The notes below the pieces were generated by a model. The model searched no databases and was not told the DNA's origin. It was given only the letters and a program-made list of their open reading frames with translations. From a virus, in the IMG/VR virus record IMGVR_UViG_3300048592_000644, positions 1 through 54,668 of that record: DNA of 54,668 nucleotides; one strand, written 5' to 3'. Position 1 is the first letter of the stretch. The number at the start of each line of letters is the position of its first letter. This document shows positions 757 through 53,509 of the stretch, one piece after another. The translations under genes were made by a program, and so were the position numbers.

Positions 757-772
757 AGTTCACCTAACAAAA

Positions 773-798
773 AACAGCCTCGAATATTCGAGGCTGTT
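773..798 (-). terminator. Intrinsic terminator after the membrane coiled-coil gene
   Basis: A perfect inverted repeat with AACAGCCTCGAA as its left arm, followed on the minus strand by a run of T. It ends the 6186 to 820 leftward unit. The loop centre CGAATATTCG resembles the dispersed palindrome family with two changes. Confidence 0.85.
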
Positions 799-819
799 TA
801 CTAGAAAGATTATTTAATT

Positions 820-1833
820 TTAGTTTAGATGTTTAGAAGCATCTTCTACCCAACGCCGGGCGGTACGTTCAGCTTGCCCGTATTTTTCCATGACTGCTTT
901 CCAGTCACTTCCCGCAATAAACAACCAATCCTCTTGGGTTAGTTCGTTTTTGCGTTTTGGTGCGGCCGGGGCCGGGCTAGAAGCCGGGGCAATGGCTTGT
1001 ACTTGGATTTGCGCCTGTTTGGTTTGCTCTTGAGCGATACGCAACTGGTAAGCCAATTGGTCACGCTCTAATTTTTGACGGGCTTCGTCGGCTTCTTTTT
1101 GTAGTTTAAGGCTATGTTCTAGCTCTTGTGCTTTTAAGGCCATCTGGTGGGTAAATTCTCGTTCCTCTTTTTCCAGTTGATAAGCACGGTCGGCCGCTTC
1201 TTTGGCCTCACTCTCTAAGCGTGTTTGTTCAGCCTTAGCTACAGCCGAATCACTTTCAATCTTGGCTATTGCGGCTAATTGTTCGGCTTCTTTTTCTGTG
1301 GCGTGTTTTTGGTCAACCATGTTGGCAAAGTTCATCATACCATTAACCGCATAAGAAAGTGGGGCCAAGATGTAAAGCATGATACCGATAATCCGTAAGG
1401 CTTGGCTCATTTCTTCCAGTAGGATTAGGGCAACGATGGCAATAACAACATACAGCACCACACCTAAGCCGGAAACAAGGGCAAAGAATTTGTAGATTTT
1501 GACATGCTCTTTTAATTCAGCATCCCACAAGGCCATTAAGAAGCGAATGGTTGATTTAGCTGAACCCATACCCAACAGGTCAAGGCCAATAGCCATAGAA
1601 GCGGCCATAAAGAAAGCCACAAAATCACCTAACGCCTCACGCGCCCCATGATAGACGGCCGCCCCCATAAAGATAACCGGGGATAGCACAATAATCATAG
1701 GGGCAATGCGCCAAGAGGTTTCAGTAAACAGCCGTTGGATAGCGTCTACCGCTCCAATGGAGCTATCTACAAATGACCATTTAGAGGAACGTTCATTTAA
1801 CTTAATCATAGCAGGGCGGACATTTGTCAACAT
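820..1833 (-). CDS. Membrane protein with long coiled coil and C-terminal HTH-like segment
   Basis: A 337-residue protein. Roughly residues 45-165 hold four hydrophobic membrane segments. Residues about 175-275 form a charged Ala/Glu/Lys/Gln-rich coiled coil. After a Pro/Ala linker, the last 45 residues read like a helix-turn-helix (QAERTARRWVEDA would be the recognition helix). The start is set by GGAGATGC eight bases upstream. If the last segment binds DNA, this would be a membrane-anchored DNA tether. Neighbours are a cell-wall hydrolase and an FtsK-like ATPase. No named family is recognised. Confidence 0.65.
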   Translation of the reverse strand: MLTNVRPAMIKLNERSSKWSFVDSSIGAVDAIQRLFTETSWRIAPMIIVLSPVIFMGAAVYHGAREALGDFVAFFMAASMAIGLDLLGMGSAKSTIRFLMALWDAELKEHVKIYKFFALVSGLGVVLYVVIAIVALILLEEMSQALRIIGIMLYILAPLSYAVNGMMNFANMVDQKHATEKEAEQLAAIAKIESDSAVAKAEQTRLESEAKEAADRAYQLEKEEREFTHQMALKAQELEHSLKLQKEADEARQKLERDQLAYQLRIAQEQTKQAQIQVQAIAPASSPAPAAPKRKNELTQEDWLFIAGSDWKAVMEKYGQAERTARRWVEDASKHLN

Positions 1834-1888
1834 ATTAGCATCTCCTTTTACAAATCATGTGTCAAATGTCTGTCAAATGACAGACAAA

Positions 1889-2998
1889 CTAATTATGACT
1901 GACAAATTGTAATGGGTCAATGATTTGCCCATTTTTCTTTACCGATAGGTGGGTATGGCAATCTGTGGAGTTCCCATTAGAGCGTTCAACCCCTACAACT
2001 GTGCGCCCTTGTACCACCTCTTGCCCCACTTCTACGATGTAATCACCGTGCATCATTACCACTTCCAAGCCCAAAGGCTTGTTTTTTAAAGCCAAATAGC
2101 TGTTATTGGCCCCGTATGGCCCTACATAGCTATCAGTCCCTTTTCGCACGACAACCCCGGAAATAGGGGCATAAAGGGGAGTTCCGCATGGGGCAAGCCA
2201 ATCACGCCCCGGCCAATCACCCACCCCATGTAACCCATTGTCTACCAGAGTGGGGGTGACATTTGACGGGTACGGCAAAATCACCTCTCCCTCACCGGCC
2301 GGATAAATGTCTGGCACTTGTTTAGAGAGGTAGTTCACCCAAGCCGGTAAGGGGTTTTGAATTGACATATCTGGGGTACGCACTAATTCAGCCTTCGTAC
2401 AACCGTATTTATGTTGGGTATAAAACTCTCTAATCGCCTCACCATTACCACTTAAAACGCCCTTGTAAATGTCGTTTGTCCAACGGCTGTATCTTTGCGT
2501 CTCTTCTCCCCAATTCTTTGAATTTAAGGCCATAAAACCGCCGTTATAACCAGCAAAAGCATTGCCTACATCCCCCCCGGCCGCATTGAGGAAGGTGCGA
2601 TAAACCGCCGCTCCTTTGTCAATATTCACTTGCGGGTCATAAGCAAGGGGGAGTTCGTGGGACATGAAGTTTAGGGGCATCACTTGCATAAGCCCCATAG
2701 CCCCGGCCGATGACACCGCCTCTGGGTTGCCACATGATTCAACCAACATAATTGTTGCCAGGGCATTAGGGTCAACATCATAGGCCGATGCAGAACGCAC
2801 GATAAGCCGCTCCCAACGGGTGATAGTGGGGGGGAATAGGTGTGAGATTCGTTCAGTTTCAAACCCACCAGTGAGATAAACGTACCCTAACCAACCCCAA
2901 AAACAATAACGAAGGGCGGTACGGATACCCTTCCATACCGCCCCTAAATCAATCACTGTGCTAATTATGAGCGTTAAAACAGCCAGTAAGGTACTCAT
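1889..2998 (-). CDS. Membrane-anchored lytic transglycosylase-M23 peptidase
   Basis: A bifunctional cell-wall hydrolase of 369 residues. After a hydrophobic N-terminus (about 1-45, anchor), residues 70-160 match the soluble lytic transglycosylase fold: catalytic Glu87 in MLVESCGNP, then SAGAMGLMQVMP and AGYNGG. Residues about 250-366 match M23 (LytM) zinc endopeptidases: His257 and Asp266 near WPGRD, and HTH at 348-350 as remaining ligand and catalytic histidines. Enzymes of this kind open peptidoglycan locally for secretion, conjugation or virion entry. Here it sits 8 bp from an FtsK-like ATPase gene, far from the tail and lysis genes, which suggests a role with that ATPase rather than plain lysis. 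Confidence 0.85.
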   Translation of the reverse strand: MSTLLAVLTLIISTVIDLGAVWKGIRTALRYCFWGWLGYVYLTGGFETERISHLFPPTITRWERLIVRSASAYDVDPNALATIMLVESCGNPEAVSSAGAMGLMQVMPLNFMSHELPLAYDPQVNIDKGAAVYRTFLNAAGGDVGNAFAGYNGGFMALNSKNWGEETQRYSRWTNDIYKGVLSGNGEAIREFYTQHKYGCTKAELVRTPDMSIQNPLPAWVNYLSKQVPDIYPAGEGEVILPYPSNVTPTLVDNGLHGVGDWPGRDWLAPCGTPLYAPISGVVVRKGTDSYVGPYGANNSYLALKNKPLGLEVVMMHGDYIVEVGQEVVQGRTVVGVERSNGNSTDCHTHLSVKKNGQIIDPLQFVSHN

Positions 2999-3006
2999 TT
3001 TTGCCT

Positions 3007-4725
3007 CTAAAACATCTTTTCAAGGTTCTCTTTAATCTGCGAAACAGCGTTGTTACGCACGGCATTTTTGGAGTTCCAAATAGCCAAAATGGTTTTGTTT
3101 TGGCTATAGCCATTGAGCAACATAAACGATACTGCACGATGCTCCCCGGCCGTGATTCCGGGAATTGTGGCGGGGGATATGTCGCTCAAAAACTCAGTTA
3201 ATTTGGCTTTGACATAAGCCGGGATTCCCCCGCTATTAGCCTCTAAATCTTCATCTTCCCCTGGTACAATGCCTTGCACCACTGGCTGGTTATACCCCTC
3301 AAAAAGTGGTGTTTTAGTGGTGTTTTGCACTGGTGTAAACACTGGTGTTTCACCTTGCACCACCTCATAATTGGGGCGTTGCCAGTTCAGTTGGTTATTT
3401 TGCGCCCCGTTTTGCACCGGCCGGGAAACACTGGTGCGGCTGGTGTTTTGCCCGTTTGGATAAACCATAGGCATAGGTCGTTGTGTGGCCTCGTCCGGCC
3501 GGGTAGAGGGGTAATTGCCCATATATTCCCCTTCGCTTTCGTCATCGGTCGGCGGACGGTTATCCCCTTCGTTAATAGCTAATTGCTCCCAAAGAGGAGC
3601 CTGGGCAGGGGTTGGGCAGTGCTTTTTGTACAACTTCGGGTCGGGTAAGCGGGGGGTCACAAACTCTTGTTTGTTGCCTCCATACCCATCGGCAATAACC
3701 AGTTTTCGTTCCCCCGTTTTATGGTCTTTTAAGGCTTGGACAATGTAGGTGAAGTTTTGCATCAAATCAGTTTGCCCTTTCATATCCATTGTTTTCATCT
3801 GCTTGTCTTGTACCCCAAGCATTAGATGAATATTTAATTTCCGGCCCCGGCGTAGGATTTGCTCTACAACGGGTTTGACATACTGTGTATTAGCCGTTAC
3901 CGCCGCATATTCGTCAATAACCACATAAAGCGGGGGAAAATCCTCTGCCCCTTCTGCATATAACTTATTGCGGCGGTCGAATAACCGGCCGATGTTAACC
4001 GCCACTTTATCAATAAGGTCATAGTTGCTCCCCCGTCCGTAAACTTTGCACCCCGGCCACAGACCAATAGCGGCATCAGGGTCTAAGACAACCACTAAGC
4101 CTTGTTTAGCGGGGTCTGGTTCACGTTTAGCCCGTTTTACCCACATAGCGGTTAACGCATGATACAGGGTTGTTTTACCCCCCCCTGTATGCCCAATCAC
4201 AAGGTTATGCAGGGCATCAGCCAATAAAGTCATCACGGCCGGGTCTGATTGTTCACCAGCTAAGACAGGTCGGCCGGTCGGCAATGGTGCATGAGCGGCC
4301 GGGGCGGGGCTTTCGTGCCGCATAACAGGGGCAACGGGGCGGGACGGCTGACTAACCGGCCGGGGTATGTTTGGGGTAGTTGGGTTAGGCGAATTAGAGC
4401 CACCGGCCGGGGGATTGTCACCGAACACGCCCATAGTCACAATTTGACCTAAATCACCATTATTGAGGAAATGGTTAACTACCCGGTATGTGCCGTAGGT
4501 TAAAATGCCACCGCTTACGCAGGTAAAGGCAGAGATGGGTACAACTTCCTCTGGCCCAAAAACGTTTTCAATAAAACTAGCCCAGACAAAGCCTCCCCCA
4601 CAAACGGTAAATACTCCCACCCCGGCCGCTTTCACGACAAAACCGCCAGCATCATTTACGATGTCAGCCAAGCCCCGGCCGGTCGTGCGTTGGTTTACAA
4701 AGTTTCTTACTGTGGTCATGTCCAT
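3007..4725 (-). CDS. FtsK/HerA-superfamily membrane DNA translocase ATPase
   Basis: A 572-residue ATPase. Two N-terminal hydrophobic segments (about 28-48 and 62-80) are followed by a Pro-rich linker, Walker A GHTGGGKTT (about 178-186), Walker B LYVVIDE (about 266-272), and the GRKLNIHLMLGVQD stretch, which parallels the sensor region of FtsK/SpoIIIE and TcpA-type coupling proteins. A disordered Gln/Asn/Pro-rich region follows, then a short C-terminal HTH-like unit (GYSQNKTILAIW). The start at 4725 is chosen because AGGAG precedes it; an upstream in-frame start at 4791 has no ribosome site. It probably moves DNA at the membrane. No relaxase or VirB4-like ATPase is visible, so conjugation is not established. 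Confidence 0.8.
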   Translation of the reverse strand: MDMTTVRNFVNQRTTGRGLADIVNDAGGFVVKAAGVGVFTVCGGGFVWASFIENVFGPEEVVPISAFTCVSGGILTYGTYRVVNHFLNNGDLGQIVTMGVFGDNPPAGGSNSPNPTTPNIPRPVSQPSRPVAPVMRHESPAPAAHAPLPTGRPVLAGEQSDPAVMTLLADALHNLVIGHTGGGKTTLYHALTAMWVKRAKREPDPAKQGLVVVLDPDAAIGLWPGCKVYGRGSNYDLIDKVAVNIGRLFDRRNKLYAEGAEDFPPLYVVIDEYAAVTANTQYVKPVVEQILRRGRKLNIHLMLGVQDKQMKTMDMKGQTDLMQNFTYIVQALKDHKTGERKLVIADGYGGNKQEFVTPRLPDPKLYKKHCPTPAQAPLWEQLAINEGDNRPPTDDESEGEYMGNYPSTRPDEATQRPMPMVYPNGQNTSRTSVSRPVQNGAQNNQLNWQRPNYEVVQGETPVFTPVQNTTKTPLFEGYNQPVVQGIVPGEDEDLEANSGGIPAYVKAKLTEFLSDISPATIPGITAGEHRAVSFMLLNGYSQNKTILAIWNSKNAVRNNAVSQIKENLEKMF

Positions 4726-4736
4726 AACTACTACTC

Positions 4737-4997
4737 CTAACCTTTGAGGCGAGAGGCGACAAAGGCAATAAACAACAAAGTACCCAAACAACCAACAACG
4801 CCTAAAGAGCTATCTTCACTATTGAAAATCAAGGAAACCTGTGCATAAAAACTGAACATTACCCAAAAAACGAAGGTGCATAACAAGAAAAGGGACGTTG
4901 CCACTACCCCAAGCACCCGGCCGGAGTAGTTTTTGAGGCTCTTAAAGCCATTTACCAAAATATCTTTGATGGTACGCATTGCGTCTGGTTGCATCAT
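4737..4997 (-). CDS. Small two-helix membrane protein
   Basis: About 86 residues with two hydrophobic segments (about 30-50 and 62-82). The start at 4997 has AGGTG just upstream and slightly overlaps the end of the next upstream gene, suggesting translational coupling. An in-frame extension to 5159 overlaps the 5002-5877 gene completely and is rejected. It is sandwiched between the ATPase and a membrane-anchored protein, so a partner role in that complex is inferred. No family is recognised. Confidence 0.65.
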   Translation of the reverse strand: MMQPDAMRTIKDILVNGFKSLKNYSGRVLGVVATSLFLLCTFVFWVMFSFYAQVSLIFNSEDSSLGVVGCLGTLLFIAFVASRLKG

Positions 4998-5001
4998 ACA
5001 C

Positions 5002-5877
5002 CTACCGTACTGTGAAGATGGCCCCGGCCACGGCCGTACCAAATTGATTGAGATAACAACGGGGCAGTGAGTAGGTCGTACCAAACAACCAACCTGGGCT
5101 TGTTTCTTGGATAGTGGCTGTTTCATCACAAGCACTTGTCCACGCCTTTGCCCCGTCATTCAAAACCACATAAGTACCCCCCGCCAACATTTGCCGTGTT
5201 TGGGTTTGAATAGAACTGTCAGCCCAAAAACTATGTTGCACCCCGCCAAAGAACTGAGTGCGAGTGGTCAATACGGTTTCAGCCTGATTTAACTTATCTT
5301 GTGCCGCCAAACCTTGAACATCCAAAGGGGACATAGCCAAGATAGACTGAACTACCGCCCGGCCTTTGGTGCGGTCGCCGCTTTTTTCAGCATCGGCTAA
5401 CTGAGTGTAATAGCCGAACAATACCTGCATTTCTGCGGTAACGGTTACAGGCGGGGCATAGGAAACGGGTGGTTGGTTGACGGCCGGTACACCCCCGCTA
5501 TAGTTTGGTGGTGGAGCATACCCCCCGCCCACGGCCGGGGCTTGATACTGTTGAGGGGGAGTGTAGGGGGTGTTGGATTGGTAGTAATAATCCATTGTGG
5601 TATTCGTGGTATTGCCCCACAAACCAGTACGCAACCCCAAATTACCAACGGCGTGACTGGCTTCACCCACGATAGGCAACCAATTGTTTCCTACTTGAGT
5701 TTGGGATTTAGTGAAGGCCGTAGGCACTACCCAAACCAGCATGAATACCACAACTGCGGCCACAACACACATGCCGATAAGGTAATTCACGGCCGCTTTG
5801 GCGTTCATGGGGCGCAAATTCCACGCCACATAACCGGCAATACCAAAAATAATGAGGGTCAAAAAAAACGGGGTCAT
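5002..5877 (-). CDS. Membrane-anchored protein with Pro/Gly/Tyr-rich linker
   Basis: A 291-residue protein. Two hydrophobic segments (about 3-20 and 32-54) are followed by a low-complexity Pro/Tyr/Gly/Gln region (about 95-145), a helical segment (about 148-195), and a C-terminal beta-rich domain with two Cys (SACDE and PRCYL) that could form a disulfide if exported. The start is set by GGAGATGC. It belongs to the same leftward unit as the FtsK-like ATPase and cell-wall hydrolase. Function unknown; an extracytoplasmic scaffold is a reasonable guess. Confidence 0.6.
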   Translation of the reverse strand: MTPFFLTLIIFGIAGYVAWNLRPMNAKAAVNYLIGMCVVAAVVVFMLVWVVPTAFTKSQTQVGNNWLPIVGEASHAVGNLGLRTGLWGNTTNTTMDYYYQSNTPYTPPQQYQAPAVGGGYAPPPNYSGGVPAVNQPPVSYAPPVTVTAEMQVLFGYYTQLADAEKSGDRTKGRAVVQSILAMSPLDVQGLAAQDKLNQAETVLTTRTQFFGGVQHSFWADSSIQTQTRQMLAGGTYVVLNDGAKAWTSACDETATIQETSPGWLFGTTYSLPRCYLNQFGTAVAGAIFTVR

Positions 5878-5910: not shown

Positions 5911-6186
5911 TTACAGAGGCCAATCATCAAACCAGATAATCAGCAAAACATCTAAAACAACTTGATACCATTTCAAAGGTATTGGTTGCCAGTTGGGTTT
6001 GTTTGATTTTGCCCGGTTACATTCCCGGCAACTACAAACAACGTTCCCCCAACTTCCCCCGCCCCTAGATACTGGTAAAACATGGTCAAACTCTAAGATG
6101 TCGGGGAACTTTCCACAGTACCTACAATGACCAAAGTCTCTAATAAGTACCCTTAACTTTGTTTTTGTAGATACATGCCTACTCAT
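5911..6186 (-). CDS. HNH endonuclease
   Basis: A 91-residue HNH nuclease. CRYCG (about 21-25) and CRECN (about 53-57) supply four zinc cysteines around the ββα-metal core with EFDHVLPVSRGG (DH being the catalytic pair) and the NVV/N segment. The size fits free-standing phage HNH proteins, which act in packaging, homing or nicking host DNA. It is the first gene of the leftward unit driven by the promoter at 6195-6224. It is not next to the terminase, so a packaging role is less likely than for typical terminase-linked HNH genes. Confidence 0.85.
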   Translation of the reverse strand: MSRHVSTKTKLRVLIRDFGHCRYCGKFPDILEFDHVLPVSRGGGSWGNVVCSCRECNRAKSNKPNWQPIPLKWYQVVLDVLLIIWFDDWPL

Positions 6187-8627: not shown

Positions 8628-9296
8628 TTAACCCCTTCTCCTGGCTTTAATAACTGGCTTGTCCCCGGCCGGTGCGTATCGCATGAGAGTAACCAGCATA
8701 GCCATAGTTAAGGGGTCATCTATATGCCCATTAAAGGTTAAATCAACTGAACCAGAAACCGTGACGTTAACCACGCCAGTACCATTGTCCTTTTGTGCTG
8801 ATTTACGCCTTTCTATGGTGTATTGACTTCCAACATCCTGACGGGGCATTTCTAGCCCCGGTATAACTTCCTCTAATCTTTCCATTAAGTCATTCCATCT
8901 TGCCCAATCCTCTCTTGCTTTTCGCGCACTTTCGTCATGCCGGGGGACGAAAAGCGGTAAAAAACGCCGTTGAATGTCTTTCGCTATAGCCCCGGCCGGT
9001 CGTGATTCGCTGACATGGATATTAACTGGTTCACCATATGAGCCTTGAAAAATCTGGTTACGGGGATAACTTGAGTTAATAGAGATAGACCACTTACCAC
9101 CCTCAAATACCAGCATAACCCAAATTTTACGCCCCGCCTTATCCACTATATAAACCATCTTGTTTTCTGTGCCGGGGGAGTTATCCCAACCGTTTCTAGG
9201 CACAAGCTCAACCGTCATATCTAAAGCGGTTGCCAACTCATACCAAAAGTCAGGGTACTCATGGGTTAAGGGTGTTTCTTGTTTTAGCCGTGACAT
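8628..9296 (-). CDS. Hypothetical protein, paralog A of a tandem pair
   Basis: A 222-residue protein clearly related to the next gene upstream (9284-9964). Both start with a YPDFW motif, keep a GRK.W..L.F..GKW strand pair, and share the identical block SESRPAGAIAKDIQRRFLP near residues 115-135, followed by a helical segment. The C-terminus has a beta-rich part ending near YAPAGDKP. The gene overlaps its paralog by 13 bases. A recent tandem duplication is inferred; function unknown. Confidence 0.65.
   Translation of the reverse strand: MSRLKQETPLTHEYPDFWYELATALDMTVELVPRNGWDNSPGTENKMVYIVDKAGRKIWVMLVFEGGKWSISINSSYPRNQIFQGSYGEPVNIHVSESRPAGAIAKDIQRRFLPLFVPRHDESARKAREDWARWNDLMERLEEVIPGLEMPRQDVGSQYTIERRKSAQKDNGTGVVNVTVSGSVDLTFNGHIDDPLTMAMLVTLMRYAPAGDKPVIKARRRG
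8961..9015. repeat. 55-bp direct repeat, copy A
   Basis: Matches 9632-9686 at 53 of 55 positions by hand alignment. It lies in the region encoding the identical SESRPAGAIAKDIQRRFLP block of the two paralogs. The strong DNA identity against weaker identity elsewhere suggests recent gene conversion or selection on this block. Confidence 0.85.
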
Positions 9297-9964
9297 GGGT
9301 GCACCTCTGCCCGGCTGTTGTTATCTTGCCCGGCCGGGGCATAACGAAAGAGGGTAGTCAACATAGCCATTGTCATAGGGTTGTCTAAATCCCCTCTAAA
9401 TTCTATGGTGATTGAGCCGTAAGCGTGAACAGCGGCCGATGCACTGTAACCTCTCTCTAAGTGGCCTGGCGGGGAATAGTGGCGGGTGAGGCGATAAGTT
9501 TTTGCCTGTTCGGTCGGCAAAGGAACGTTGGGTAAAAGTTCCTCCATTCTTTCCATCACTTCCCGCCATTGTGCAATATCTTTTTTTATTTGCACCACCC
9601 GGCCGTCATGCTCTTTCACAAACTCAGGTAGAAAACGCCGTTGAATATCTTTCGCTATGGCCCCGGCCGGTCGTGATTCGCTGACACAAATTGAGAGGGG
9701 CTTGCCACGATACCCCCCAAAGATGGGGTTTTGTGGGTAGGTGCTACTAACCTCAATTACCCATTTTCCCGTTTGAAAGATTAGATAAAGCCAAACCTTG
9801 CGCCCCTCCTTATCCACTAAATACGCACGGTCAAGCATCACTTCTGGGTTATCCGTACCTTCATATTTCTGCATCGTCTCAACCTTCATATTTAAGGCAG
9901 AGGCTATCTCATGCCAGAAATCAGGGTATTGGTGAATAGGGATGGGCTTTTCTTTAAGGGGCAT
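9284..9964 (-). CDS. Hypothetical protein, paralog B of a tandem pair
   Basis: A 226-residue paralog of 8628-9296 with the same order of parts: YPDFW near the N-terminus, GRKVWLYLIF strand, conserved SESRPAGAIAKDIQRRFLP block, helix with E.ME.LLP, and a diverged C-terminus. No catalytic motif is visible. The SRPAG...RRFLP block has two arginines and a lysine in a helix, which could contact nucleic acid or phosphate, but this is speculation. Confidence 0.65.
   Translation of the reverse strand: MPLKEKPIPIHQYPDFWHEIASALNMKVETMQKYEGTDNPEVMLDRAYLVDKEGRKVWLYLIFQTGKWVIEVSSTYPQNPIFGGYRGKPLSICVSESRPAGAIAKDIQRRFLPEFVKEHDGRVVQIKKDIAQWREVMERMEELLPNVPLPTEQAKTYRLTRHYSPPGHLERGYSASAAVHAYGSITIEFRGDLDNPMTMAMLTTLFRYAPAGQDNNSRAEVHPCHG
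9632..9686. repeat. 55-bp direct repeat, copy B
   Basis: Second copy of the repeat at 8961-9015 (53 of 55 identical), in the same place of the paralogous gene. Confidence 0.85.
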
Positions 9965-10452: not shown

Positions 10453-11043
10453 TTAGTTTTCTATTAACTCTAAATCTTGGAAGGTGTAAGAGAAATGGTG
10501 GGCTTCATCTGCGGGATTGTGTAAGTAGTTAATGAGCCGCCACTTACTGGTATCCCATGCCGGAAAGACTGACAGAGGAAAGACAGACTTATCCCCCTGC
10601 ACCACCGTATCTACTGCGGTTAGATACAGGTGTGTGGCGATTGGTAAAAACGCCTCATAAATTGCCGCTCCCCCCGCAATGATTATCTCCCCATCATACC
10701 GGCCGCATACTTGAGCAATATCTAAGGCATGGGTCACACTACTGGCAGAAATAAACCCCGGCTTGTAATAATCCTTTCGTTCACTCATTAAGATGGCCGT
10801 CCGGCCGGGCAACGGGTGGAAATGGGGCTGGAACTCCACCAAAATATTCCCATGATGTTGATTAACAATTTTCCCCAGATAAGGCTTAGGTAATGATTCG
10901 GCTGTTTTGCGCCCCATAATAACGGGTTTCCCCATTGTTATGGCCCGGAAACGTTTTAGGTCATTTGGTAAGTGCCAGGGCAGTTGTCCATTTTGCCCTA
11001 TGGCCCCATTCTTTGAGATGGCCGCCACAATTGATATTTTCAT
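10453..11043 (-). CDS. folA: Dihydrofolate reductase
   Basis: Reduces dihydrofolate to tetrahydrofolate with NADPH, regenerating the folate used up by thymidylate synthase. Visible hallmarks: ISIVAAISKNGAIGQNGQLP with PWHLPNDLKRF (substrate and Met20-loop region with the catalytic acidic residue), VIMGRKTAESLP, and IIIAGGAAIYEAFLP (NADPH site). The start is ATG at 11043, overlapping the previous stop (ATGA). At 196 residues it is longer than typical bacterial enzymes (about 160) because of an insertion of about 25 residues between AESLP and PLPGRT. It is co-transcribed with thymidylate synthase, a common phage pairing for dTMP supply. Confidence 0.95.
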   Translation of the reverse strand: MKISIVAAISKNGAIGQNGQLPWHLPNDLKRFRAITMGKPVIMGRKTAESLPKPYLGKIVNQHHGNILVEFQPHFHPLPGRTAILMSERKDYYKPGFISASSVTHALDIAQVCGRYDGEIIIAGGAAIYEAFLPIATHLYLTAVDTVVQGDKSVFPLSVFPAWDTSKWRLINYLHNPADEAHHFSYTFQDLELIEN

Positions 11044-11420
11044 CACTTCCCCTTTCGCCGTGTGCGAATCTCAAAATACCCCTGTAAATGTGGGTACTCT
11101 GACATAATCTTTCGGGCATAAAAAGCCCCATAGGAATTATTTATTTTCCACTTGTCCCCTGATGTGCGTATAGCACCACGCCGGAGGCTTTCCATATAAA
11201 ACTGTATGCTCATATGCCCAACACCCGCATTAAAGTCATCTTGTACCATGTGGACAAGGTTTTTATAAACATGAGGGTTGAGCATATGGAAAGCCTCAAA
11301 TCGTTCCTTCCGTGTTTGCGGCCGCACCTCTTTGGGTAATTGTTTCAATGGCTCAAAGTCTAGGGTGAAGCGAAGCTGTACAGTTTGGTCAATATCATCT
11401 GGGTCAATCAGGTTATTCAT
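11043..11420 (-). CDS. Conserved-looking hypothetical protein between thyA and folA
   Basis: A 125-residue protein. The core (about 40-115) has the pattern ERFEAFHMLNPHVYKNLVHM, then SIQFYMESLRRGAIRTSGD, then KINNSYGAFYARKIM, then a C-terminal FEIRTRR. I recall similar small proteins in other phages but cannot name the family or a function. It is helical and basic, so nucleic-acid binding is possible. The start has AAGGAGATGCT. Its stop overlaps the dihydrofolate reductase start. Confidence 0.6.
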   Translation of the reverse strand: MNNLIDPDDIDQTVQLRFTLDFEPLKQLPKEVRPQTRKERFEAFHMLNPHVYKNLVHMVQDDFNAGVGHMSIQFYMESLRRGAIRTSGDKWKINNSYGAFYARKIMSEYPHLQGYFEIRTRRKGK

Positions 11421-11429
11421 AGCATCTCC

Positions 11430-12224
11430 TTAAACTGCTACAGGGGCTTTAATCGCCGGGTGGGGATTGTAGCCAGACAAAACAATATCATCATAAACAA
11501 AATCAAAAATATCATATCTGCGAGTTAACTTAACCGTTGGGAGCGGCCGTGGCTCACGGTCTAATAATTGATTAACTTGAGAGAGATGGTTTAGGTAAAT
11601 ATGAGCATCCCCCAGGGTATGAATGAACTCCCCCGGCCGGTATCCCGTCACATTGGCAACCAACAGAGTTAAGAGGGCATAACTGGCAAGATTAAACGGC
11701 ACTCCCAGAAAAGCATCTGCACTGCGTTGGTACAACTGGCAAGATAAACGATTGGTGGTGGAAACATAGAACTGAAAGAGGCAATGACAAGGGGGCAAGG
11801 CCATTTGGTCAATTTCCCCCACGTTCCATGCGGAAACAACGTGTCGGCGGGAATGTGGGTTGTCAATCAGGCCATTAACCAGTTCGGTTATTTGGTCTAC
11901 GGTTCGCCCATCGGCCCCGGCCCATGAACGCCATTGTTTGCCATATACTGGCCCCAACTCCCCCACCTCATCTGCCCACTCATTCCAAATAGATACCCCA
12001 TTCTCTTTGAGGTAAGCAATATTTGTTTCGCCTTTCAAAAACCAAAGTAGTTCGTGAACAATGGACTTAAAGTGTACTTTTTTAGTGGTGAGAAGCGGAA
12101 AAGAGGTGCTAAGGTCGAAACGCATCTGATACCCAAAGGTGCTAACTGTTCCCGTTCCTGTGCGGTCACTCTTTTGCTCCCCATTTTTGAGGATGTGCCA
12201 TAAGAGGTCGTGGTATTGCTTCAT
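11430..12224 (-). CDS. thyA: Thymidylate synthase
   Basis: Makes dTMP from dUMP with methylene-tetrahydrofolate. At 264 residues it has the same length as the E. coli enzyme. The nucleophile Cys146 lies in [21 protein letters not shown] (about 19-26) is the phosphate-binding Arg loop; [20 protein letters not shown] is the conserved dUMP-binding stretch with Asn and Tyr ligands; [12 protein letters not shown] completes the site. All key residues appear intact. It raises dTTP for phage replication together with the reductase 1.2 kb downstream. Confidence 0.97.
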
Positions 12225-12493: not shown

Positions 12494-13016
12494 TATCGCC
12501 TCCATTTTGGCGTTTGTATTGGCGTAAATTAAGTCTAATTAGCCAATATGTAATTGTTGATAAAGGCAATTCTAGCTTTTCTGCTAGTTGTTGTTTTGTC
12601 ATGTTAGCTGTTTTGTACTGTTTCAATACCTCCATTTTTTCAGGGGTTAGACTACGGGTGTTACGGGCAGAACTATCTTGAACATTCAAGCCGAATTTAT
12701 TTATTGCCCATCTTAACCGATGCCAGTCTACCCCTATCTTTCGGCTAACATCGGCTCTAGTCAAACCATCATTTACCATTTGAACGGCTTGCGTGGCCTG
12801 TTCTAAGGTGACGGGAGGGAGCGTTTTTTGTCCGTTTCGGGCTTCATTCCAGGGGCGCACCCATAAACCCATTTCCTCAAAACGGCGGTAAAGGTTTTGG
12901 GGATAAACATTTAGCTCGTCGGCCAGTTTGGTAATTGATTCTCCGGCAACATGCCGGGGATGTATGGTAAGAATAACGTGGTCTGTAAGGCTTTTTTTGC
13001 CGTTTTTTCGCTTCAT
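12477..13016 (-). CDS. Triple tandem helix-turn-helix protein
   Basis: A 179-residue basic protein built of three HTH units of about 45-55 residues: (1) ESITKLADELNVYPQNLYRR, ending FEEMGL; (2) DGLTRADVSRKIGVDWHRL, ending INKFGL; (3) NMTKQQLAEKLELPLSTITY, ending LIRLNL. Each has the same ending, aromatic/hydrophobic-x-x-x-x-Gly/Asn-Leu, as in the upstream 503-residue gene. Start and stop of the two genes overlap as ATGA, so they are coupled and probably work together. The frame contains the palindrome at 12677-12690 (encoding LNVQ). Sequence-specific DNA binding is inferred. Confidence 0.75.
   Translation of the reverse strand: MKRKNGKKSLTDHVILTIHPRHVAGESITKLADELNVYPQNLYRRFEEMGLWVRPWNEARNGQKTLPPVTLEQATQAVQMVNDGLTRADVSRKIGVDWHRLRWAINKFGLNVQDSSARNTRSLTPEKMEVLKQYKTANMTKQQLAEKLELPLSTITYWLIRLNLRQYKRQNGGDNGHDI
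12677..12690. repeat. Dispersed palindrome CTTGAACATTCAAG, copy 2
   Basis: Perfect family member inside the triple HTH gene. In frame it encodes LNVQ, like nearly all intragenic copies. Confidence 0.7.
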
Positions 13017-14524
13017 TTCTGCACCAGTGAAAAGCCGGAAACTAACATTTTACGCACTTCAGCTAGTTCTAATTTGTATTTCTTTGCCAAACTCTCCACA
13101 CTGGCCCCAGACTGCCGCTCATGGGCTAAGACGGCCGGGGTTGCCTGTGGGGTTTGTTTGGGTGGAGTAGCCTTCTTTGGTTGCCGTTTTTGTTTTTGTT
13201 GTGCCTTGCGCTCTTTAATTTGCCCGGCCGTTGGCACTTCATTAAGGGGAGGTAAATTAAATTTAGTGAATTGCTTAACTACCTCAGTCCAACTAATTTT
13301 GAGCATGGCACAAACATCTTTGCGGCTGGCCCCGGCCTTGCGTTTTTCGTAAGCCATCACAATCTCTGCCTCACTAAAGTCTTGCCGTTGGAATGGTTTA
13401 GGACGGGGTTTGTTGATAGGCGTTAACCCCAAACGAACAAAACTTTTTTTGAGGGTATCCCACAACACATTGAGGTTATTACACACCTCGTCCCTATCTA
13501 AGCCATCGGTTAATTGCTTATGGGCGGTAATTATTTGGTGGTCACTGAGTAACGCTTTCGCGCCCGGCCGGTTCTTTTTAATCGTTCCCCTGCGCTCCTC
13601 ATAAATTTTTTTGAGGGTGTTGTAATTCAGATTTAACCGCTTTGCTATGTTTACAAAAGATACTCTTTTTTCTAGCAATTCCTTAACTTTATCAAGGGTT
13701 TCATCGGTGACAATAACCCGCCGCACTCTTTGGCGAGTGAGCTTGCGAACAGGTAACTTGACCCCACGCCGTTTTAATATCGCCCCTAGTGACTTTTTGT
13801 GTATACCGTACTTCTCACCAATTTGGGCTAATGTTAAACCCTCCCCATAATGCCCTAGAATCTCCTCTGTTGGCACATGGTTCAAGTTATGTGCCTCTCT
13901 GACAGGATTCCAGCCCAACGCTTCAAACACCTTTTTTAGCCGCTTATGAGTGGTGCTGTATTTCTTGCTGACTTGCTCCCACGTTGATTCCCCTTGTAGC
14001 TCCTCATAAATCTTTTTGGCTAACTCAGGGGCTATCTTTCTATTAACGCTATAAGGGGATGCGTCACATATGGCTTTGACGGTGTAGAAAGACATCTTGT
14101 GTTTCTTAGCCAACAAACATATAGCCACCCCGCTCATATATTCAGACATAATTTTTTCTTTTACTTCCTGTGGGATTTGGTCGGTGTATCCCCTGGGTAC
14201 GCTACGGGGTAAACCATACTGAATAAACCGCCGCCGCAAAACAGAGGACGTGACATTTAGCTCCTGGGCGACAACCGCCAAAACAGCCCCATTGGAGTAT
14301 TTGGCATGGGCATCCCTTACTTCCTGTTCGGTTAAATCTTGCTCCGGCCGGGCGCGTTTTGGCCCTCTTTTGCGGGGTGGTAACTTTAGACCCATTACCC
14401 CAAAGCGGCGGTAGAAATACGTTTCAGAGACGTTGTATTCAGCCGCGATTTGGTAAACCAATTCCCCGGCCTTTGCCCGTTCATAAACTTTTACTATTTC
14501 TTCATTTGAAATTATGCTTGCCAT
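13013..14524 (-). CDS. Nine-unit tandem helix-turn-helix protein
   Basis: A 503-residue basic protein made almost wholly of HTH units. I count nine at roughly 50-55-residue spacing, with cores such as VYQIAAEYNVSETYFYRR, VLAVVAQELNVTSSVLRRR, LAQIGEKYGIHKKSLGAIL and RDEVCNNLNVLWDTLKKS, most closing with a G-L/G-W/G-V turn and a basic linker (PPRKRGPKRARP, LPVRKLTRQRVRR). The last unit is degenerate. The start at 14524 follows GAGGAGATGT; the longer start at 14539 would place the ribosome site inside the ORF. Bead-like repetition suggests reading of a long DNA site or coating of DNA. I know of no named family with this architecture. Confidence 0.8.
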   Translation of the reverse strand: MASIISNEEIVKVYERAKAGELVYQIAAEYNVSETYFYRRFGVMGLKLPPRKRGPKRARPEQDLTEQEVRDAHAKYSNGAVLAVVAQELNVTSSVLRRRFIQYGLPRSVPRGYTDQIPQEVKEKIMSEYMSGVAICLLAKKHKMSFYTVKAICDASPYSVNRKIAPELAKKIYEELQGESTWEQVSKKYSTTHKRLKKVFEALGWNPVREAHNLNHVPTEEILGHYGEGLTLAQIGEKYGIHKKSLGAILKRRGVKLPVRKLTRQRVRRVIVTDETLDKVKELLEKRVSFVNIAKRLNLNYNTLKKIYEERRGTIKKNRPGAKALLSDHQIITAHKQLTDGLDRDEVCNNLNVLWDTLKKSFVRLGLTPINKPRPKPFQRQDFSEAEIVMAYEKRKAGASRKDVCAMLKISWTEVVKQFTKFNLPPLNEVPTAGQIKERKAQQKQKRQPKKATPPKQTPQATPAVLAHERQSGASVESLAKKYKLELAEVRKMLVSGFSLVQK

Positions 14525-14548
14525 ACATCTCCTCAACAAATCATGTAA

Positions 14549-14937: not shown

Positions 14938-15405
14938 TTAGTAGGGAATGATTATCCCGTATTGTGTCGCCACAATTTTAGACACCTTTTCTCTGGTTTG
15001 TGGGTGAAGTTGTGAACTAACTCGCCCCCAATGTTTTTCTAACCATTCTTTCAGGTCAAACCGGCCGGAGTAGGCCATTCCGGCCCCGCCCCAATCGGCT
15101 ATCATCTCGACAATATACTTGTCTGGCATAGGCACTGGTGTACCGTGTAATATCCAGTGTTCATAGTGGTGGGGGTTATGGTGAAGGTGGTGCAGGAAAG
15201 CCCGGTCAAAGTTTACTTTGCCTTGCCCATCCCTCGCTCCCCCTTCCCAATATTTAGCATACGGAATAAATTCGGCCGGTGAGAATTTGCTTAAATCATG
15301 TATGAGAAGTTGCCAGAGGGATACATCTAACTCTATCCCACACATAAACACATAATATTTGTGCCTCAAAATCTTAACGAAGTTTTTCCAGTAAATGTTG
15401 TTCAT
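14938..15405 (-). CDS. DUF5662-like His-rich protein
   Basis: A 155-residue protein with a pattern I associate with the DUF5662 family: an N-terminal helix HKYYVFMCGIEL, then LIHDLSKFSPAEFIPYAKYW, then FDRAFLHHLHHNPHHYEHW. Many conserved His and Asp suggest a metal-dependent, HD-like hydrolase fold, though no activity is established. Such genes are common in phages of many bacteria. It is the last gene before the late terminator. Confidence 0.7.
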   Translation of the reverse strand: MNNIYWKNFVKILRHKYYVFMCGIELDVSLWQLLIHDLSKFSPAEFIPYAKYWEGGARDGQGKVNFDRAFLHHLHHNPHHYEHWILHGTPVPMPDKYIVEMIADWGGAGMAYSGRFDLKEWLEKHWGRVSSQLHPQTREKVSKIVATQYGIIIPY

Positions 15406-29084: not shown

Positions 29085-29987
29085 CTACAGGTTTTTCCAA
29101 AAGTCATCGGTAATAATTAAATCAGCAAGGGGAGTAACTACCGTTTCTACTTCGGCCTGTCCTAAGTGATTAACGATAGGTCGCCCTTGAGGGTCACGTT
29201 TTTGCCGTGTTTCCTCACGATACCCCAGAATTTTCCGGGGGTCGTGGTCTGACTTCTTTACCTCTGGCTTAATGTCATGTAACTGGCTAGATAATCCGTG
29301 CAGTCTATCATCTTCTTTCGTGGTTTGTTCAACGTGCTTGAAGTTATGCTCAAAATAGTCATATCCAAGCCATTGATACAACTCTTTCATCATAACCTCT
29401 GGTTCGTTTACCAAACGGTCATACTCCACAAAAAACATTGAATCTCTAAAGCCCCATTGAACGGCTAGTTTAATCATGTTAGCCGGATGCCCCGCCATCC
29501 CGTTAGACGAGGCCCATACTTTGATTCTATCTTCAATGGTTGCCATAGAAGCATCTTTTGGAGCGGCCGGGGGTGCGCCTGTCGCAACAGCCCGACGATA
29601 CTCTAGTTCAAGTGAAGTCAAGATACCTACCGTGTCCCGCACAGGCACAATCAGCTTGACGGGGTAAGGTAAAGTAGCCTGTAAAAACATTAGGTGTTCG
29701 GGATTGTTCCAGCCTCGGTTTTTATCAAAAATAACCGGGGCTGTTTCCCTTGCATAAAACCCATCTATGATGCCTCGCAAAACCCCCATTTTGCGTTGCC
29801 CATTGATGGTTTTATCCTCAGCTAAATTCAGATATATCTTGTCCCACTGGTTTTTAATGGATACCGTTAGCTCCATGAGGGAGCTAGTACCAGATGCCCG
29901 AAATTGCGGGTTTTGGTTCAAGATATTACAGAGTAACGTTGACCCTGTGCGGGGTAATCCCCCTATAAAATGCACTGTTTTGTTCAT
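29085..29987 (-). CDS. Sulfotransferase (PAPS-dependent)
   Basis: A 300-residue enzyme predicted to move a sulfuryl group from PAPS to an acceptor. The 5'-phosphosulfate loop GLPRTGSTLLC lies at about 10-20 and the 3'-phosphate motif VRDTVGILTSLE (Arg and Ser) near 116-127. The EYDRLVNEPEVMMKELYQWLGYD stretch is typical of the family's C-terminal part. The acceptor is unknown: host surface glycan, phage tail protein or small molecule. It lies inside the tail cluster between fibre and tube genes, with the palindrome at 30006-30019 about 20 bp upstream of its start, so it may be a separately controlled added gene (moron). Confidence 0.85.
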   Translation of the reverse strand: MNKTVHFIGGLPRTGSTLLCNILNQNPQFRASGTSSLMELTVSIKNQWDKIYLNLAEDKTINGQRKMGVLRGIIDGFYARETAPVIFDKNRGWNNPEHLMFLQATLPYPVKLIVPVRDTVGILTSLELEYRRAVATGAPPAAPKDASMATIEDRIKVWASSNGMAGHPANMIKLAVQWGFRDSMFFVEYDRLVNEPEVMMKELYQWLGYDYFEHNFKHVEQTTKEDDRLHGLSSQLHDIKPEVKKSDHDPRKILGYREETRQKRDPQGRPIVNHLGQAEVETVVTPLADLIITDDFWKNL

Positions 29988-42924: not shown

Positions 42925-43236
42925 TTAGTTCCCTTCGGTTTCCGTTTCATTTTCCATTACCGCAATAACATCATGCGCCCGAATCAAAATCATTTGCACC
43001 CCATTTAATTTAACCCGTATTCCGGCTAATTTATCAAAAATGATATTGTCCCCCACCTCTACATCCGGCCGGAGGCGCACCCCTTTTTTGCTAAACTTGC
43101 CACGGCCGACACTGTAAACAATGCCCTCATTCTTATACCCTGTTTTAGTGGGGATAATGAGGCCGGAGGGTGTGGCCTCCTCCATTTTCTTTGGGGCCAC
43201 TAAAATACAATCACCATATGCCAGTAAAGAAGTCAT
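42925..43236 (-). CDS. groES: GroES-like co-chaperonin
   Basis: A 103-residue protein with the Cpn10 pattern: LLAYGDCILVAPKKMEEATP, SGLIIPT (mobile loop with the GroEL-binding I-x-I/L-P), NEGIVYSVGRG, VEVGDNIIFDKLAGIRVKLN, MILIRAHDVIAVMEN. Phage co-chaperonins such as T4 gp31 adapt host GroEL for folding capsid subunits. The position between portal and capsid genes supports this, and the large fused capsid protein may need it. No GroEL is present, so host GroEL is the presumed partner. Confidence 0.9.
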   Translation of the reverse strand: MTSLLAYGDCILVAPKKMEEATPSGLIIPTKTGYKNEGIVYSVGRGKFSKKGVRLRPDVEVGDNIIFDKLAGIRVKLNGVQMILIRAHDVIAVMENETETEGN

Positions 43237-46132: not shown

Positions 46133-47791
46133 TCAAACATTATCAAAACCAGTTTGTATGTCTTTTTTAAGGCTTATAATTGCCGTCTCAGGGGCAAGAG
46201 AAGCCATTAAACAGTAGTTTTCGGCATGGGCAAAGTGGTCGGCTTCCGTTTCAATATAAACGCTCCGGCCGTTCTTTATTTGCCTCAGTGGTGCTTTTAG
46301 TTGTGAATAATAGCGGGGAATGGAATCAGCATTGCCCGGCAAAGCGTTCTCTCTGGCTCTAAATCTGGAATAGGTGAGGTCGAGGGTACGGGTGCGGTCG
46401 GCGACAACTATCATATCTTCCTCATTCCACTCAACTGAAGCCACACCCCTCAACCCATCGGGGCTGGTGTGGTAACGGCAAAGCCAAACCCGCCCCCGGC
46501 CGTATTGCGCCTGTATCCCCCGCACCATATTTGTTTCCGGGCCTATGTCGAATACTGCCCGTTTAACCTTGTAGACGCTCATAAGGAGCGGAATATCAGA
46601 AGGTTGGGCTTCTGTGGCACACAGTAAAGGTCGTTTGCCTTGCTCATTTAATGGGGCGCGAATAATGACATGAAGCACCTTGCCCACGTCCACTCCCATT
46701 AAATTACCGCCTCCGGCCGGGCCGGGGAGATAACCCATTTTACAGGCGTTCAAATCCTCATCGGTTAGACGGCCACCTCTCGGAGAGTAGGGTAATCCTA
46801 AATCCTGATTCCAACATTCACGGATTTTAGATTCATCAAACGATTGTAAGGCTTGCACCATCTCTTTAAGGGGGCTACGGGGGTAGCAAAGTTTGGTTGG
46901 GTGGAATCCCACTAAGTCATTGCTTCTACTTGGATACTTAGCCACCCACCGGCCGGGGGATTTGCGGTCTAAAATCTTGTGGCACTTTTTACAACAGCAA
47001 AGATACTGGTTAATCTTTTGCCCATACCACGCTATGGGCTGTTGGTCGTGATTCCAGTCAATGACCACATTGTTAATGTCTATCTCTTGCCATGTGCCAC
47101 AATGAGGGCATTTTAAGCACCATACTCTTTGGTCTGACTGCATCCATTCAGCATGGATACCAATAGAGTTAAACGTAGGGGTTGAGAGGCTTAGTTCCTC
47201 TGCTATAAGAGAGTGACCTAACCGTTTTGAAACTAAATCCTTTACCCTGGGGTTCATCACATCTACTTCATCCCTTACCCCTATATCGGCATCAATAGAG
47301 CGTAACTGAGAGGCGTTTCCCTCAGTATCAATCTTCCCCCCTCGAAAGGTTATGAAGTTGTCTCTCACCCGCTTCATGGTCACTCTGTCGGCCCCGCCCT
47401 CCCCGGCATTGACCACTAAAGAAGCGAGATAGGGACTGCTTTTTAAGGCTGGCCCAAAGCGTTTTTGTGAAAAATCGCTTACATCCCCATCGGTTGGCAT
47501 AACATAGAATACATCAGCCTTTCTTACGTCACATGACCACAAGGCACGATTAACCGCATATTCGCTAAGGCCAAGTTGCCCCCCTTTCATTAAGACAATC
47601 TTTTTGGCCTCACACTCATAAATGCCCCTTAAAAACTGGTGATGCTCCAGGTCAAAGGCAAGGTTAGGTTTAATGAGCGGCCGGTGCTTGATTGTCCATT
47701 CCAGCAAACCCATATATTTGCGGCCGGTCTGAATGTTTACCCGCCGCAGTTTTTCATCTAGTGCTGTAATGAGTTCGTGAGTTTGGTTCAT
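46133..47791 (-). CDS. Terminase large subunit, GpA type
   Basis: A 552-residue packaging ATPase-nuclease. The deviant Walker A KGGQLGLSEY (about 69-78), the DADIGVRDEVD region (Walker B-like), a zinc-ribbon-like pair CLKCPHCG and CCCKKC (about 230-275), and the nuclease segment LMGVDVGKVLHV fit the lambda gpA (Terminase_GpA) family. These cut and translocate concatemeric DNA, usually at cos sites, though headful relatives exist. The ribosome site is poor, and the palindrome at 47796-47809 occupies its place, so translation or transcription may be regulated there. Confidence 0.9.
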   Translation of the reverse strand: MNQTHELITALDEKLRRVNIQTGRKYMGLLEWTIKHRPLIKPNLAFDLEHHQFLRGIYECEAKKIVLMKGGQLGLSEYAVNRALWSCDVRKADVFYVMPTDGDVSDFSQKRFGPALKSSPYLASLVVNAGEGGADRVTMKRVRDNFITFRGGKIDTEGNASQLRSIDADIGVRDEVDVMNPRVKDLVSKRLGHSLIAEELSLSTPTFNSIGIHAEWMQSDQRVWCLKCPHCGTWQEIDINNVVIDWNHDQQPIAWYGQKINQYLCCCKKCHKILDRKSPGRWVAKYPSRSNDLVGFHPTKLCYPRSPLKEMVQALQSFDESKIRECWNQDLGLPYSPRGGRLTDEDLNACKMGYLPGPAGGGNLMGVDVGKVLHVIIRAPLNEQGKRPLLCATEAQPSDIPLLMSVYKVKRAVFDIGPETNMVRGIQAQYGRGRVWLCRYHTSPDGLRGVASVEWNEEDMIVVADRTRTLDLTYSRFRARENALPGNADSIPRYYSQLKAPLRQIKNGRSVYIETEADHFAHAENYCLMASLAPETAIISLKKDIQTGFDNV

Positions 47792-52983: not shown

Positions 52984-53509
52984 TGTTCACCCCACCTTTA
53001 TCTTGAATATTCAAACTTAATTCAATCTTCATAGAATCCCGTAGCCGGATGGGGAACTCGGCGGCCGGGAACTCGTGGTGAAGGCGATTGACCAGCACTT
53101 CCTCAACCGTTTTTACCGCTAATTGATTAGTGAGGTGAAACAGGCCCCGGCACACAATAGTCGGCCGGGTAAGGCTTGCCCTTTTCGTTACCTCGAAAAC
53201 AGGGGAGGCCATATCAACCCTGATGCCGCTCATGCCTAAAAAATGCAACTGGTAAGGCTCAGGCCGTGCGGCCGATGAAACAACAGTGTTCACTAAGTTA
53301 GGGTTACAAAAGGCAATATCAAAGTTATGCCCCACCCACCCGTCCTTTTGCGGAAAAAGAGTGCTTAACTTGTGCCGGGCGTTGCTTCTTACGTCCTTTT
53401 CGTCGGCCGAATGTAAGGCATGAAGGGAGATGTATAACCTCATACCATATTTTTCCTCTCGACGTGCGGCACTCAGTACCATGCCATAGAGGTTGCGTTC
53501 TTTGCTCAT
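52976..53509 (-). CDS. Hypothetical early protein next to the ClpP-like gene
   Basis: A 177-residue alpha/beta protein (NLYGMVLSAARREEKYGMRL, LFPQKDGWVGHNFDIAFCNP, then TRPTIVCRGLFHLTNQLAVK). The start overlaps the protease stop (ATGA), so the two are coupled. It contains the palindrome at 53002-53015, encoding LNIQ near its C-terminus. No family is recognised. Confidence 0.55.
   Translation of the reverse strand: MSKERNLYGMVLSAARREEKYGMRLYISLHALHSADEKDVRSNARHKLSTLFPQKDGWVGHNFDIAFCNPNLVNTVVSSAARPEPYQLHFLGMSGIRVDMASPVFEVTKRASLTRPTIVCRGLFHLTNQLAVKTVEEVLVNRLHHEFPAAEFPIRLRDSMKIELSLNIQDKGGVNNE
53002..53015. repeat. Dispersed palindrome CTTGAATATTCAAA, copy 10
   Basis: Perfect TTGAATATTCAA core near the 3' end of the 52976-53509 gene, encoding LNIQ in frame. 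Confidence 0.7.

What the first reader, a model, noticed from the sequence alone, without database searches (positions are those of the whole stretch)
820..5877. Membrane/DNA module: FtsK-like ATPase, cell-wall hydrolase and membrane tether in a siphophage
Five consecutive genes encode membrane-anchored products: a four-TM coiled-coil protein with an HTH-like end, a transglycosylase-M23 hydrolase, an FtsK/HerA-type ATPase with two TMs and an HTH-like C-terminus, and two further membrane proteins. Such a set resembles the DNA-transfer core of conjugative elements or the packaging and entry genes of tectiviruses, neither expected beside a GpA terminase and a siphovirus tail. Relaxase, VirB4 and double-jelly-roll capsid genes are absent here. 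The module could tether, segregate or transfer phage DNA at the membrane.
Basis: partly seen in the sequence, partly recalled or inferred. Interest (0 to 1): 0.75.

Follow-up and report, generated by a model that had tools for sequence, protein, structure and literature searches.

The report
Phage membrane DNA-motor gene cluster
A tailed phage carries an operon for a membrane-bound DNA pump of the FtsK type, a cell-wall enzyme and a membrane protein ending in a DNA-binding fold; in related phages the pump and the DNA-binding protein sit where plasmid-style partition genes normally sit, which suggests the phage keeps its DNA in cells like a plasmid.

Summary
The five-gene cluster is real (820-5877, minus strand; a terminator-like hairpin follows at 799-772). 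The ATPase is a divergent FtsK/SpoIIIE-type motor: 9 of 11 family members hit Pfam FtsK, though the window copy stays below the cut-off, and the best fold match is the E. coli FtsK motor. The hydrolase pairs a transglycosylase domain that keeps its motifs with an M23 domain that has lost one zinc histidine. The four-TM protein ends in an HTH homologous to that of similar proteins in related phages.

Relatives come from metagenomic siphophages. Of 28 phages sharing the capsid gene, 6 carry the motor, 4 the four-TM/HTH protein and 16 a ParM-like actin, 15 of those with a small adapter gene. Among 18 with the replication helicase, ParM (13) and four-TM/HTH (4) never co-occur. They appear in the same place and have swapped at least two to three times on the helicase tree.

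Best reading: a membrane-anchored apparatus that maintains, segregates or transfers the phage's plasmid-like DNA, closest in kind to Streptomyces TraB/SpdB. It is not a conjugative T4SS; tectiviral P9 was not tested. The window contig lacks replication and partition genes and may be a fragment, so function is inferred from relatives.

The parts
5002..5877 (-). 291-aa protein, two N-terminal TM segments, Pro/Gln/Tyr-rich linker, unknown C-terminal domain
   Evidence: ORF; TM; AAGGAG upstream; no relative in 33 records
4737..4997 (-). small two-TM protein (listed as ORF 4737-5159; likely starts at 4979-4997)
   Evidence: a small two-TM gene also precedes the ATPase in L101, L102, L103
3007..4725 (-). 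FtsK/SpoIIIE-type membrane ATPase (ORF open to 4791; likely start ATG 4725), two TM, Walker A GHTGGGKT, Walker B VVIDEY, RRGRKLNIHL motif, C-terminal tail of uncertain fold
1889..2998 (-). membrane-anchored peptidoglycan hydrolase: SLT domain plus M23 domain lacking the first zinc histidine
   Evidence: Pfam; motifs; M23 alignments
820..1833 (-). four-TM, coiled-coil protein with C-terminal HTH, homologous in its tail to proteins found in the ParM slot of related phages
772..799 (-). intrinsic-terminator-like hairpin closing the operon
   Evidence: inverted repeat I7
5911..6186 (-). HNH endonuclease upstream of the module on the same strand; membership in the operon uncertain
   Evidence: Pfam HNH E=1.1e-9

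Best explanation
The cluster is a membrane-anchored DNA-handling apparatus of a siphophage that probably persists as a plasmid-like episome. An FtsK/TraB-type hexameric motor (inferred) sits in the inner membrane and binds and moves double-stranded phage DNA. The four-TM/coiled-coil/HTH protein fixes a phage DNA site to the membrane, a role that in sister phages is taken by the ParM/adapter partition pair. The small membrane proteins scaffold the motor. In this phage the SLT enzyme opens or remodels peptidoglycan at the site, with its degenerate M23 domain as a structural or regulatory part, so the apparatus could work at a septum. Shown: gene content, FtsK class of the motor, HTH homology, and in relatives replacement of ParM and adjacency to the replication helicase. 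Inferred: hexamer, DNA movement, membrane tethering, episomal life of this phage, and the role of the hydrolase.
For: FtsK class: 9 of 11 family members hit PF01580 at E<=0.01; three relatives tested singly pass the Pfam cut-off at E=2.1e-9, 2.5e-7 and 6.8e-7; Foldseek top hit is the E. coli FtsK motor, E=6.2e-5. The HTH-tail profile built without the window hits window 820-1833 at E=2.7e-7 among 8225 ORFs, with no hit in shuffled ORFs. Slot exchange: of 18 records with the helicase anchor, 13 have ParM, 4 have four-TM/HTH, none both, 1 neither; Fisher p=0.0016, and the helicase tree needs 3 changes, at least 2 of them forced by starred branches. The motor gene lies directly before ParM in G005 and G023, one small gene before it in G002, and directly before the four-TM/HTH gene in G016 and G028. 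ParM-like hit to ALP_N E=1.1e-10. A small adapter gene occurs in 15 of 28 clade records, all ParM carriers. Tyrosine recombinases are in 19 of 28 clade records; ParM plus Xer is the set described for Bacillus plasmid prophages (passages of PMC8026635).
Against: The window contig itself has no hit to the ParM, ParA, ParB, Xer or helicase profiles; it is a linear record that may be a fragment. Its SLT-M23, 291-aa, small TM and 236-aa proteins have no convincing relative in the other 32 records. The TM part of the window four-TM protein is not recognisably related to the others (hhalign E=0.57). Group A and window ATPases match each other only through intermediates. The motor was not found in 22 of 28 clade records (many are fragments), so it looks accessory. 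Iterated 8-mers after the helicase also occur in G029, which lacks ParM and four-TM/HTH, so they may be a replication origin rather than a centromere.
Confidence: 0.45

Rival explanations
1. TraB/SpdB-like transfer: the motor pumps double-stranded phage-plasmid DNA into a neighbouring cell or across a septum, the wall enzyme clears peptidoglycan, and the four-TM/HTH protein is the Spd-type partner.
For: Streptomyces needs a single FtsK homologue, TraB, with no T4SS, and SpdB2 is an oligomeric DNA-binding membrane protein that interacts with TraB and affects plasmid stability (passages of PMC4170104). The wall enzyme is inside this operon and a similar SLT-M23 protein sits in a flagellar operon of Thermomicrobium. 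In most relatives the motor carries or follows a lipobox plus coiled segment outside the membrane.
Against: No relative shows the wall enzyme beside the motor; no clt-like 8-mer above chance near the module in the window (48 of 200 shuffles); no TraB profile was run.
Confidence: 0.25
2. Virion-linked entry or exit cassette, as in tectiviruses: the hydrolase and membrane proteins deliver or package DNA.
For: SLT and M23 domains are common in virion-associated lysins; PHROG hits are tail and internal virion lysins. One ATPase hit is to a PHROG named terminase, E=3e-8.
Against: The genome already has a GpA terminase, tape measure and tail genes elsewhere. In relatives the module sits by the replication helicase, not by structural genes.
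Confidence: 0.1
3. Lysis or superinfection-exclusion membrane cluster that merely neighbours an FtsK-like gene.
For: Membrane proteins plus a wall hydrolase are typical of such clusters; the window proteins other than the motor and the HTH tail have no relatives in the surveyed set.
Against: A holin family hit (PF09682) lies among other window ORFs. The motor and four-TM/HTH genes are adjacent in G028 and G016 without a hydrolase, so their link is not through lysis.
Confidence: 0.1
4. Protein export by an EccC/EssC-like ATPase (type VII secretion).
For: Best curated NCBIfam hits of the window ATPase are EccCa (4.6e-8) and EccCb; 7 of 11 family members hit EccCb.
Against: Only one ATPase domain, the hits are far below the curated cut-offs, no WXG100 or other T7SS gene was seen among the Pfam hits, and the partner carries a DNA-binding fold.
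Confidence: 0.04

Closest known systems
Streptomyces TraB with SpdB-type spread proteins
   Same: FtsK-type membrane motor with a membrane DNA-binding partner, no relaxase or VirB4 seen, plasmid context (function from passages of PMC4170104)
   Different: Found in tailed phages; partner has four TM, coiled coil and HTH; the window adds an SLT-M23 enzyme; sequence similarity to TraB not tested
FtsK/SpoIIIE DNA translocases
   Same: Walker motifs and fold of the motor, N-terminal TM segments, Pro/Gln-rich linker
   Different: About 220-aa core, no recognised FtsK gamma domain, window copy under the Pfam cut-off; several relatives have a lipobox and an extracytoplasmic coil
Type II partition (ParM/adapter), incl. 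plasmid prophages of Bacillus and prophage AlpA/AlpC
   Same: The four-TM/HTH gene takes the place of ParM after the replication helicase; phage-borne DNA positioning is known for AlpC (abstract of PMC4446434)
   Different: No actin-like protein on the window contig; membrane protein instead of filament
TubY of type III partition
   Same: HTH plus coiled coil that binds DNA and membrane in a partition machine (abstract of PMC7762940)
   Different: TubY has an amphipathic C-terminal tail, not four TM; the HTH is at the other end; homology not tested

Membership tests
FtsK/SpoIIIE translocase | Walker A and Walker B (DE) with the following GRK-type segment before a glutamine | tested here: met
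   alignments
FtsK/SpoIIIE translocase | Pfam FtsK_SpoIIIE above curated cut-off | tested here: not met
   window E=0.032, 14.1 bits against 24; relatives L127, L149 and L131 do pass
FtsK/SpoIIIE translocase | FtsK motor fold | tested here: met
   Foldseek 2ius E=6.2e-5, but overall model pLDDT 45.7, core about 70-83
FtsK/SpoIIIE translocase | DNA-reading winged-helix gamma domain | tested here: inconclusive
   no Pfam hit; tail profile of relatives misses the window; low-confidence model
Conjugative T4SS | relaxase and VirB4-type ATPase | tested here: not met
   no such Pfam family in 53 other window ORFs at E<=1e-5; contig may be incomplete
Tectiviral packaging/entry | double-jelly-roll capsid and P9 ATPase | not tested
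   no P9 or double-jelly-roll profile run; the capsid is instead of the Rctr41k protease-capsid type
Streptomyces TraB/Spd system | TraB homology and 8-bp clt repeats | not tested
   no TraB profile; an 8-mer repeat scan near the module in the window showed nothing above chance
Type II partition | ParM-like actin with adapter | tested here: not met
   no window hit to the ParM or adapter profiles, though 16 and 15 of 28 clade records have them
Active M23 endopeptidase | all zinc ligands | tested here: not met
   Trp in place of the first His, HxH kept; ligand roles recalled
Rctr41k-type siphophages | protease-capsid fusion and head genes | tested here: met
   capsid 30% identity over 99% of the query to KX853513; further head genes

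The most novel reading that the evidence does not exclude
The motor plus four-TM/coiled-coil/HTH pair is a partition principle distinct from ParA, ParM and TubZ: a membrane-fixed FtsK-type pump and a membrane DNA anchor that segregate a phage episome without a cytoskeletal filament, and that have replaced ParM more than once among these phages.
Probability: 0.2. Interest if true: 0.88.

Novelty: new variant of a known kind. Interest (0 to 1): 0.62.

Why it matters
If right, a widespread group of uncultured siphophages keeps its genome as a plasmid and uses either an actin-like partition pair or a membrane motor with a membrane DNA anchor for the same slot. That would offer a natural swap experiment between cytoskeletal and membrane-motor segregation, and show TraB-like machinery inside tailed phages.

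Tried and rejected
Single-sequence scans of viral contigs with the ATPase and with the four-TM protein, and of genome contigs with the ATPase core, found nothing; the capsid profile found nothing in genome contigs, so no host was identified. The SLT-M23 scan gave only common SLT domains. Single-sequence searches of 45 capsid-clade records (44 of 80 loci plus Rctr41k; the other 36 loci were left out, mostly short contigs) gave 0 of 45 for both the ATPase and the hydrolase. This would have been misread as absence, because the profile then found three of them.

Pattern scans: one search gave 0; one search gave two chance hits in wrong frames; one search gave five, of which L099 is chance (stop codon inside).

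The first four-TM match of the window (E=1.9e-8) was partly coiled-coil composition, since in the four-seed run the hit covers residues 194-335 with bias 14.7. I therefore rely on the HTH-tail result (bias 0.3). G023 entered the ATPase profile through its low-complexity N-terminus and is kept on motifs seen. Foldseek of the four-TM model gave nothing significant.

Weak plasmid hits to Actinobacteria that I opened were a T7SS locus and another FtsK-domain protein. MT836307 (H1) was fetched and its ORFs listed, but it was not used further than one tblastn. Literature: searches returned 0 papers and one search (Rctr41k) 0; two gave the papers cited. This is not proof that nothing is in print.

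Full report
What is there. The window is a 54,668-base linear IMG/VR virus record. Reading down the minus strand from 5877 there are a 291-aa protein with two TM segments, a small two-TM protein, an ATPase, a transglycosylase/M23 protein with an N-terminal TM segment, and a four-TM protein with coiled coil and HTH. A perfect hairpin with a T run follows the last stop codon. Translation starts of the second and third genes need shortening. An HNH gene lies upstream on the same strand.

The motor. Alone, the window ATPase gives sub-threshold Pfam hits to FtsK and HerA and weak curated hits to EccC and TraD-type proteins. A pattern for a motif shared with a Pseudanabaena plasmid protein found four true relatives in 60-74 kb viral contigs. 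Their profile then found three more among 45 records of phages with a related capsid gene, and the plasmid protein; iterated profiles on the pieces read brought the capsid-clade total to six. Over 11 members the common core is Walker A, a DE Walker B and a GRK-like segment before a glutamine. Nine of the 11 match Pfam FtsK_SpoIIIE at E<=0.01, and the model core is nearest to the E. coli FtsK motor, EccC, HerA and TcpA.

The hydrolase. The SLT motifs ES, GLMQ and AYN are present. In the M23 domain the alignment to solved M23 enzymes starts right after the position where they carry the first zinc histidine; the window has Trp there (ligand roles recalled). It therefore probably cuts glycan strands but not peptide bridges.

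The four-TM protein. A profile of the C-terminal tails of four related-phage proteins, built without the window, hits it at E=2.7e-7 among 8225 ORFs with little bias. Nothing in shuffled ORFs is hit. The TM part is too divergent to match.

Context in relatives. I read 27 IMG/VR capsid-clade records (25 whole, G013 and G017 nearly so), Rctr41k, and four further records carrying the motor (G047 and G048 whole, G045 and G046 up to base 58,000). In G028 and G016 the order after the replication helicase is small two-TM protein, lipobox/coil protein, motor, four-TM/HTH protein. In G005 and G023 the motor is followed directly by a ParM-like actin; in G002 a 98-aa gene lies between. Counts over the 28 clade records: motor 6, four-TM/HTH 4, ParM 16, ParM adapter 15 (all ParM carriers), tyrosine recombinase 19. 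Of the 18 with the helicase anchor, 13 have ParM, 4 four-TM/HTH, none both, 1 neither; Fisher p=0.0016. Rows are related, so the helicase tree matters more: it needs 3 changes, at least 2 forced by well-supported branches. The four-TM/HTH protein thus appears to stand in for ParM.

Repeats. In the 660 nt after the helicase the best 8-mer beats all 200 shuffles in 9 of 18 records and is reached by at most 1 shuffle in 12 of 18. This fits iterons or a centromere. G029, with no partition gene found, has it too, so an origin is as likely. Near the window module nothing exceeds chance.

Mechanism. Taken together, the best reading is a membrane apparatus that holds and moves the phage's own episomal DNA. 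The TraB/SpdB system shows that an FtsK-type motor with a membrane DNA-binding partner can do this without relaxase or T4SS (passages of PMC4170104), and TubY shows a coiled-coil/HTH protein that ties a partition complex to membrane (abstract of PMC7762940). Whether the DNA stays in the cell (partition) or passes a septum or wall (transfer) is open. The wall enzyme, and the lipobox stalks on relatives' motors, lean a little to the latter.

Limits. The window carries no helicase, Xer, ParM, ParA or ParB hit and could be a fragment. Host unknown: no match in genome contigs. Three of the five window proteins (291-aa, small TM, SLT-M23) have no convincing relatives in the set. The episomal life of these phages is inferred from gene content alone.

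Noticed in passing
L010 (Virus Rctr41k), L131, L137, L127 and other capsid-clade loci: Rctr41k-type siphophages carry ParM-like actin, small adapter and tyrosine recombinases, so many are predicted plasmid-like phages.
   Followed up: partly
L149 6994-7304; L131 6996-7241: Iterated 8-mers (CGATGAAC; AGTGAACA) in the gap after the replication helicase, origin- or centromere-like.
   Followed up: partly
L116 16734-18245; L120 7813-9462; L124 1298-2869: FtsK-like motors fused to an N-terminal lipobox, Ala/Thr-rich coil and one TM: an unusual envelope-spanning layout.
   Followed up: partly
29085-29987: Sulfotransferase (PF13469 E=7.8e-14) within the tail region.
   Followed up: no
42925-43236: GroES-like Cpn10 gene by sequence (PF00166 E=4.1e-19 among the 53 ORFs scanned), near the head genes.
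   Followed up: no
13013-14539: 508-aa protein with many successive HTH-like hits.
   Followed up: no
10453-12224: DHFR and thymidylate synthase genes; ClpP at 53506-54219.
   Followed up: no
46133-47791: Terminase 47% identical to that of G048 (L122 5729-7405), a phage whose capsid gene was not matched by the window's capsid profile.
   Followed up: partly
8628-9964: Two adjacent similar genes (8628-9296, 9284-9964) of unknown function.
   Followed up: no
14938-15405: DUF5662 gene with a 38% identical relative in L122 3978-4424.
   Followed up: no
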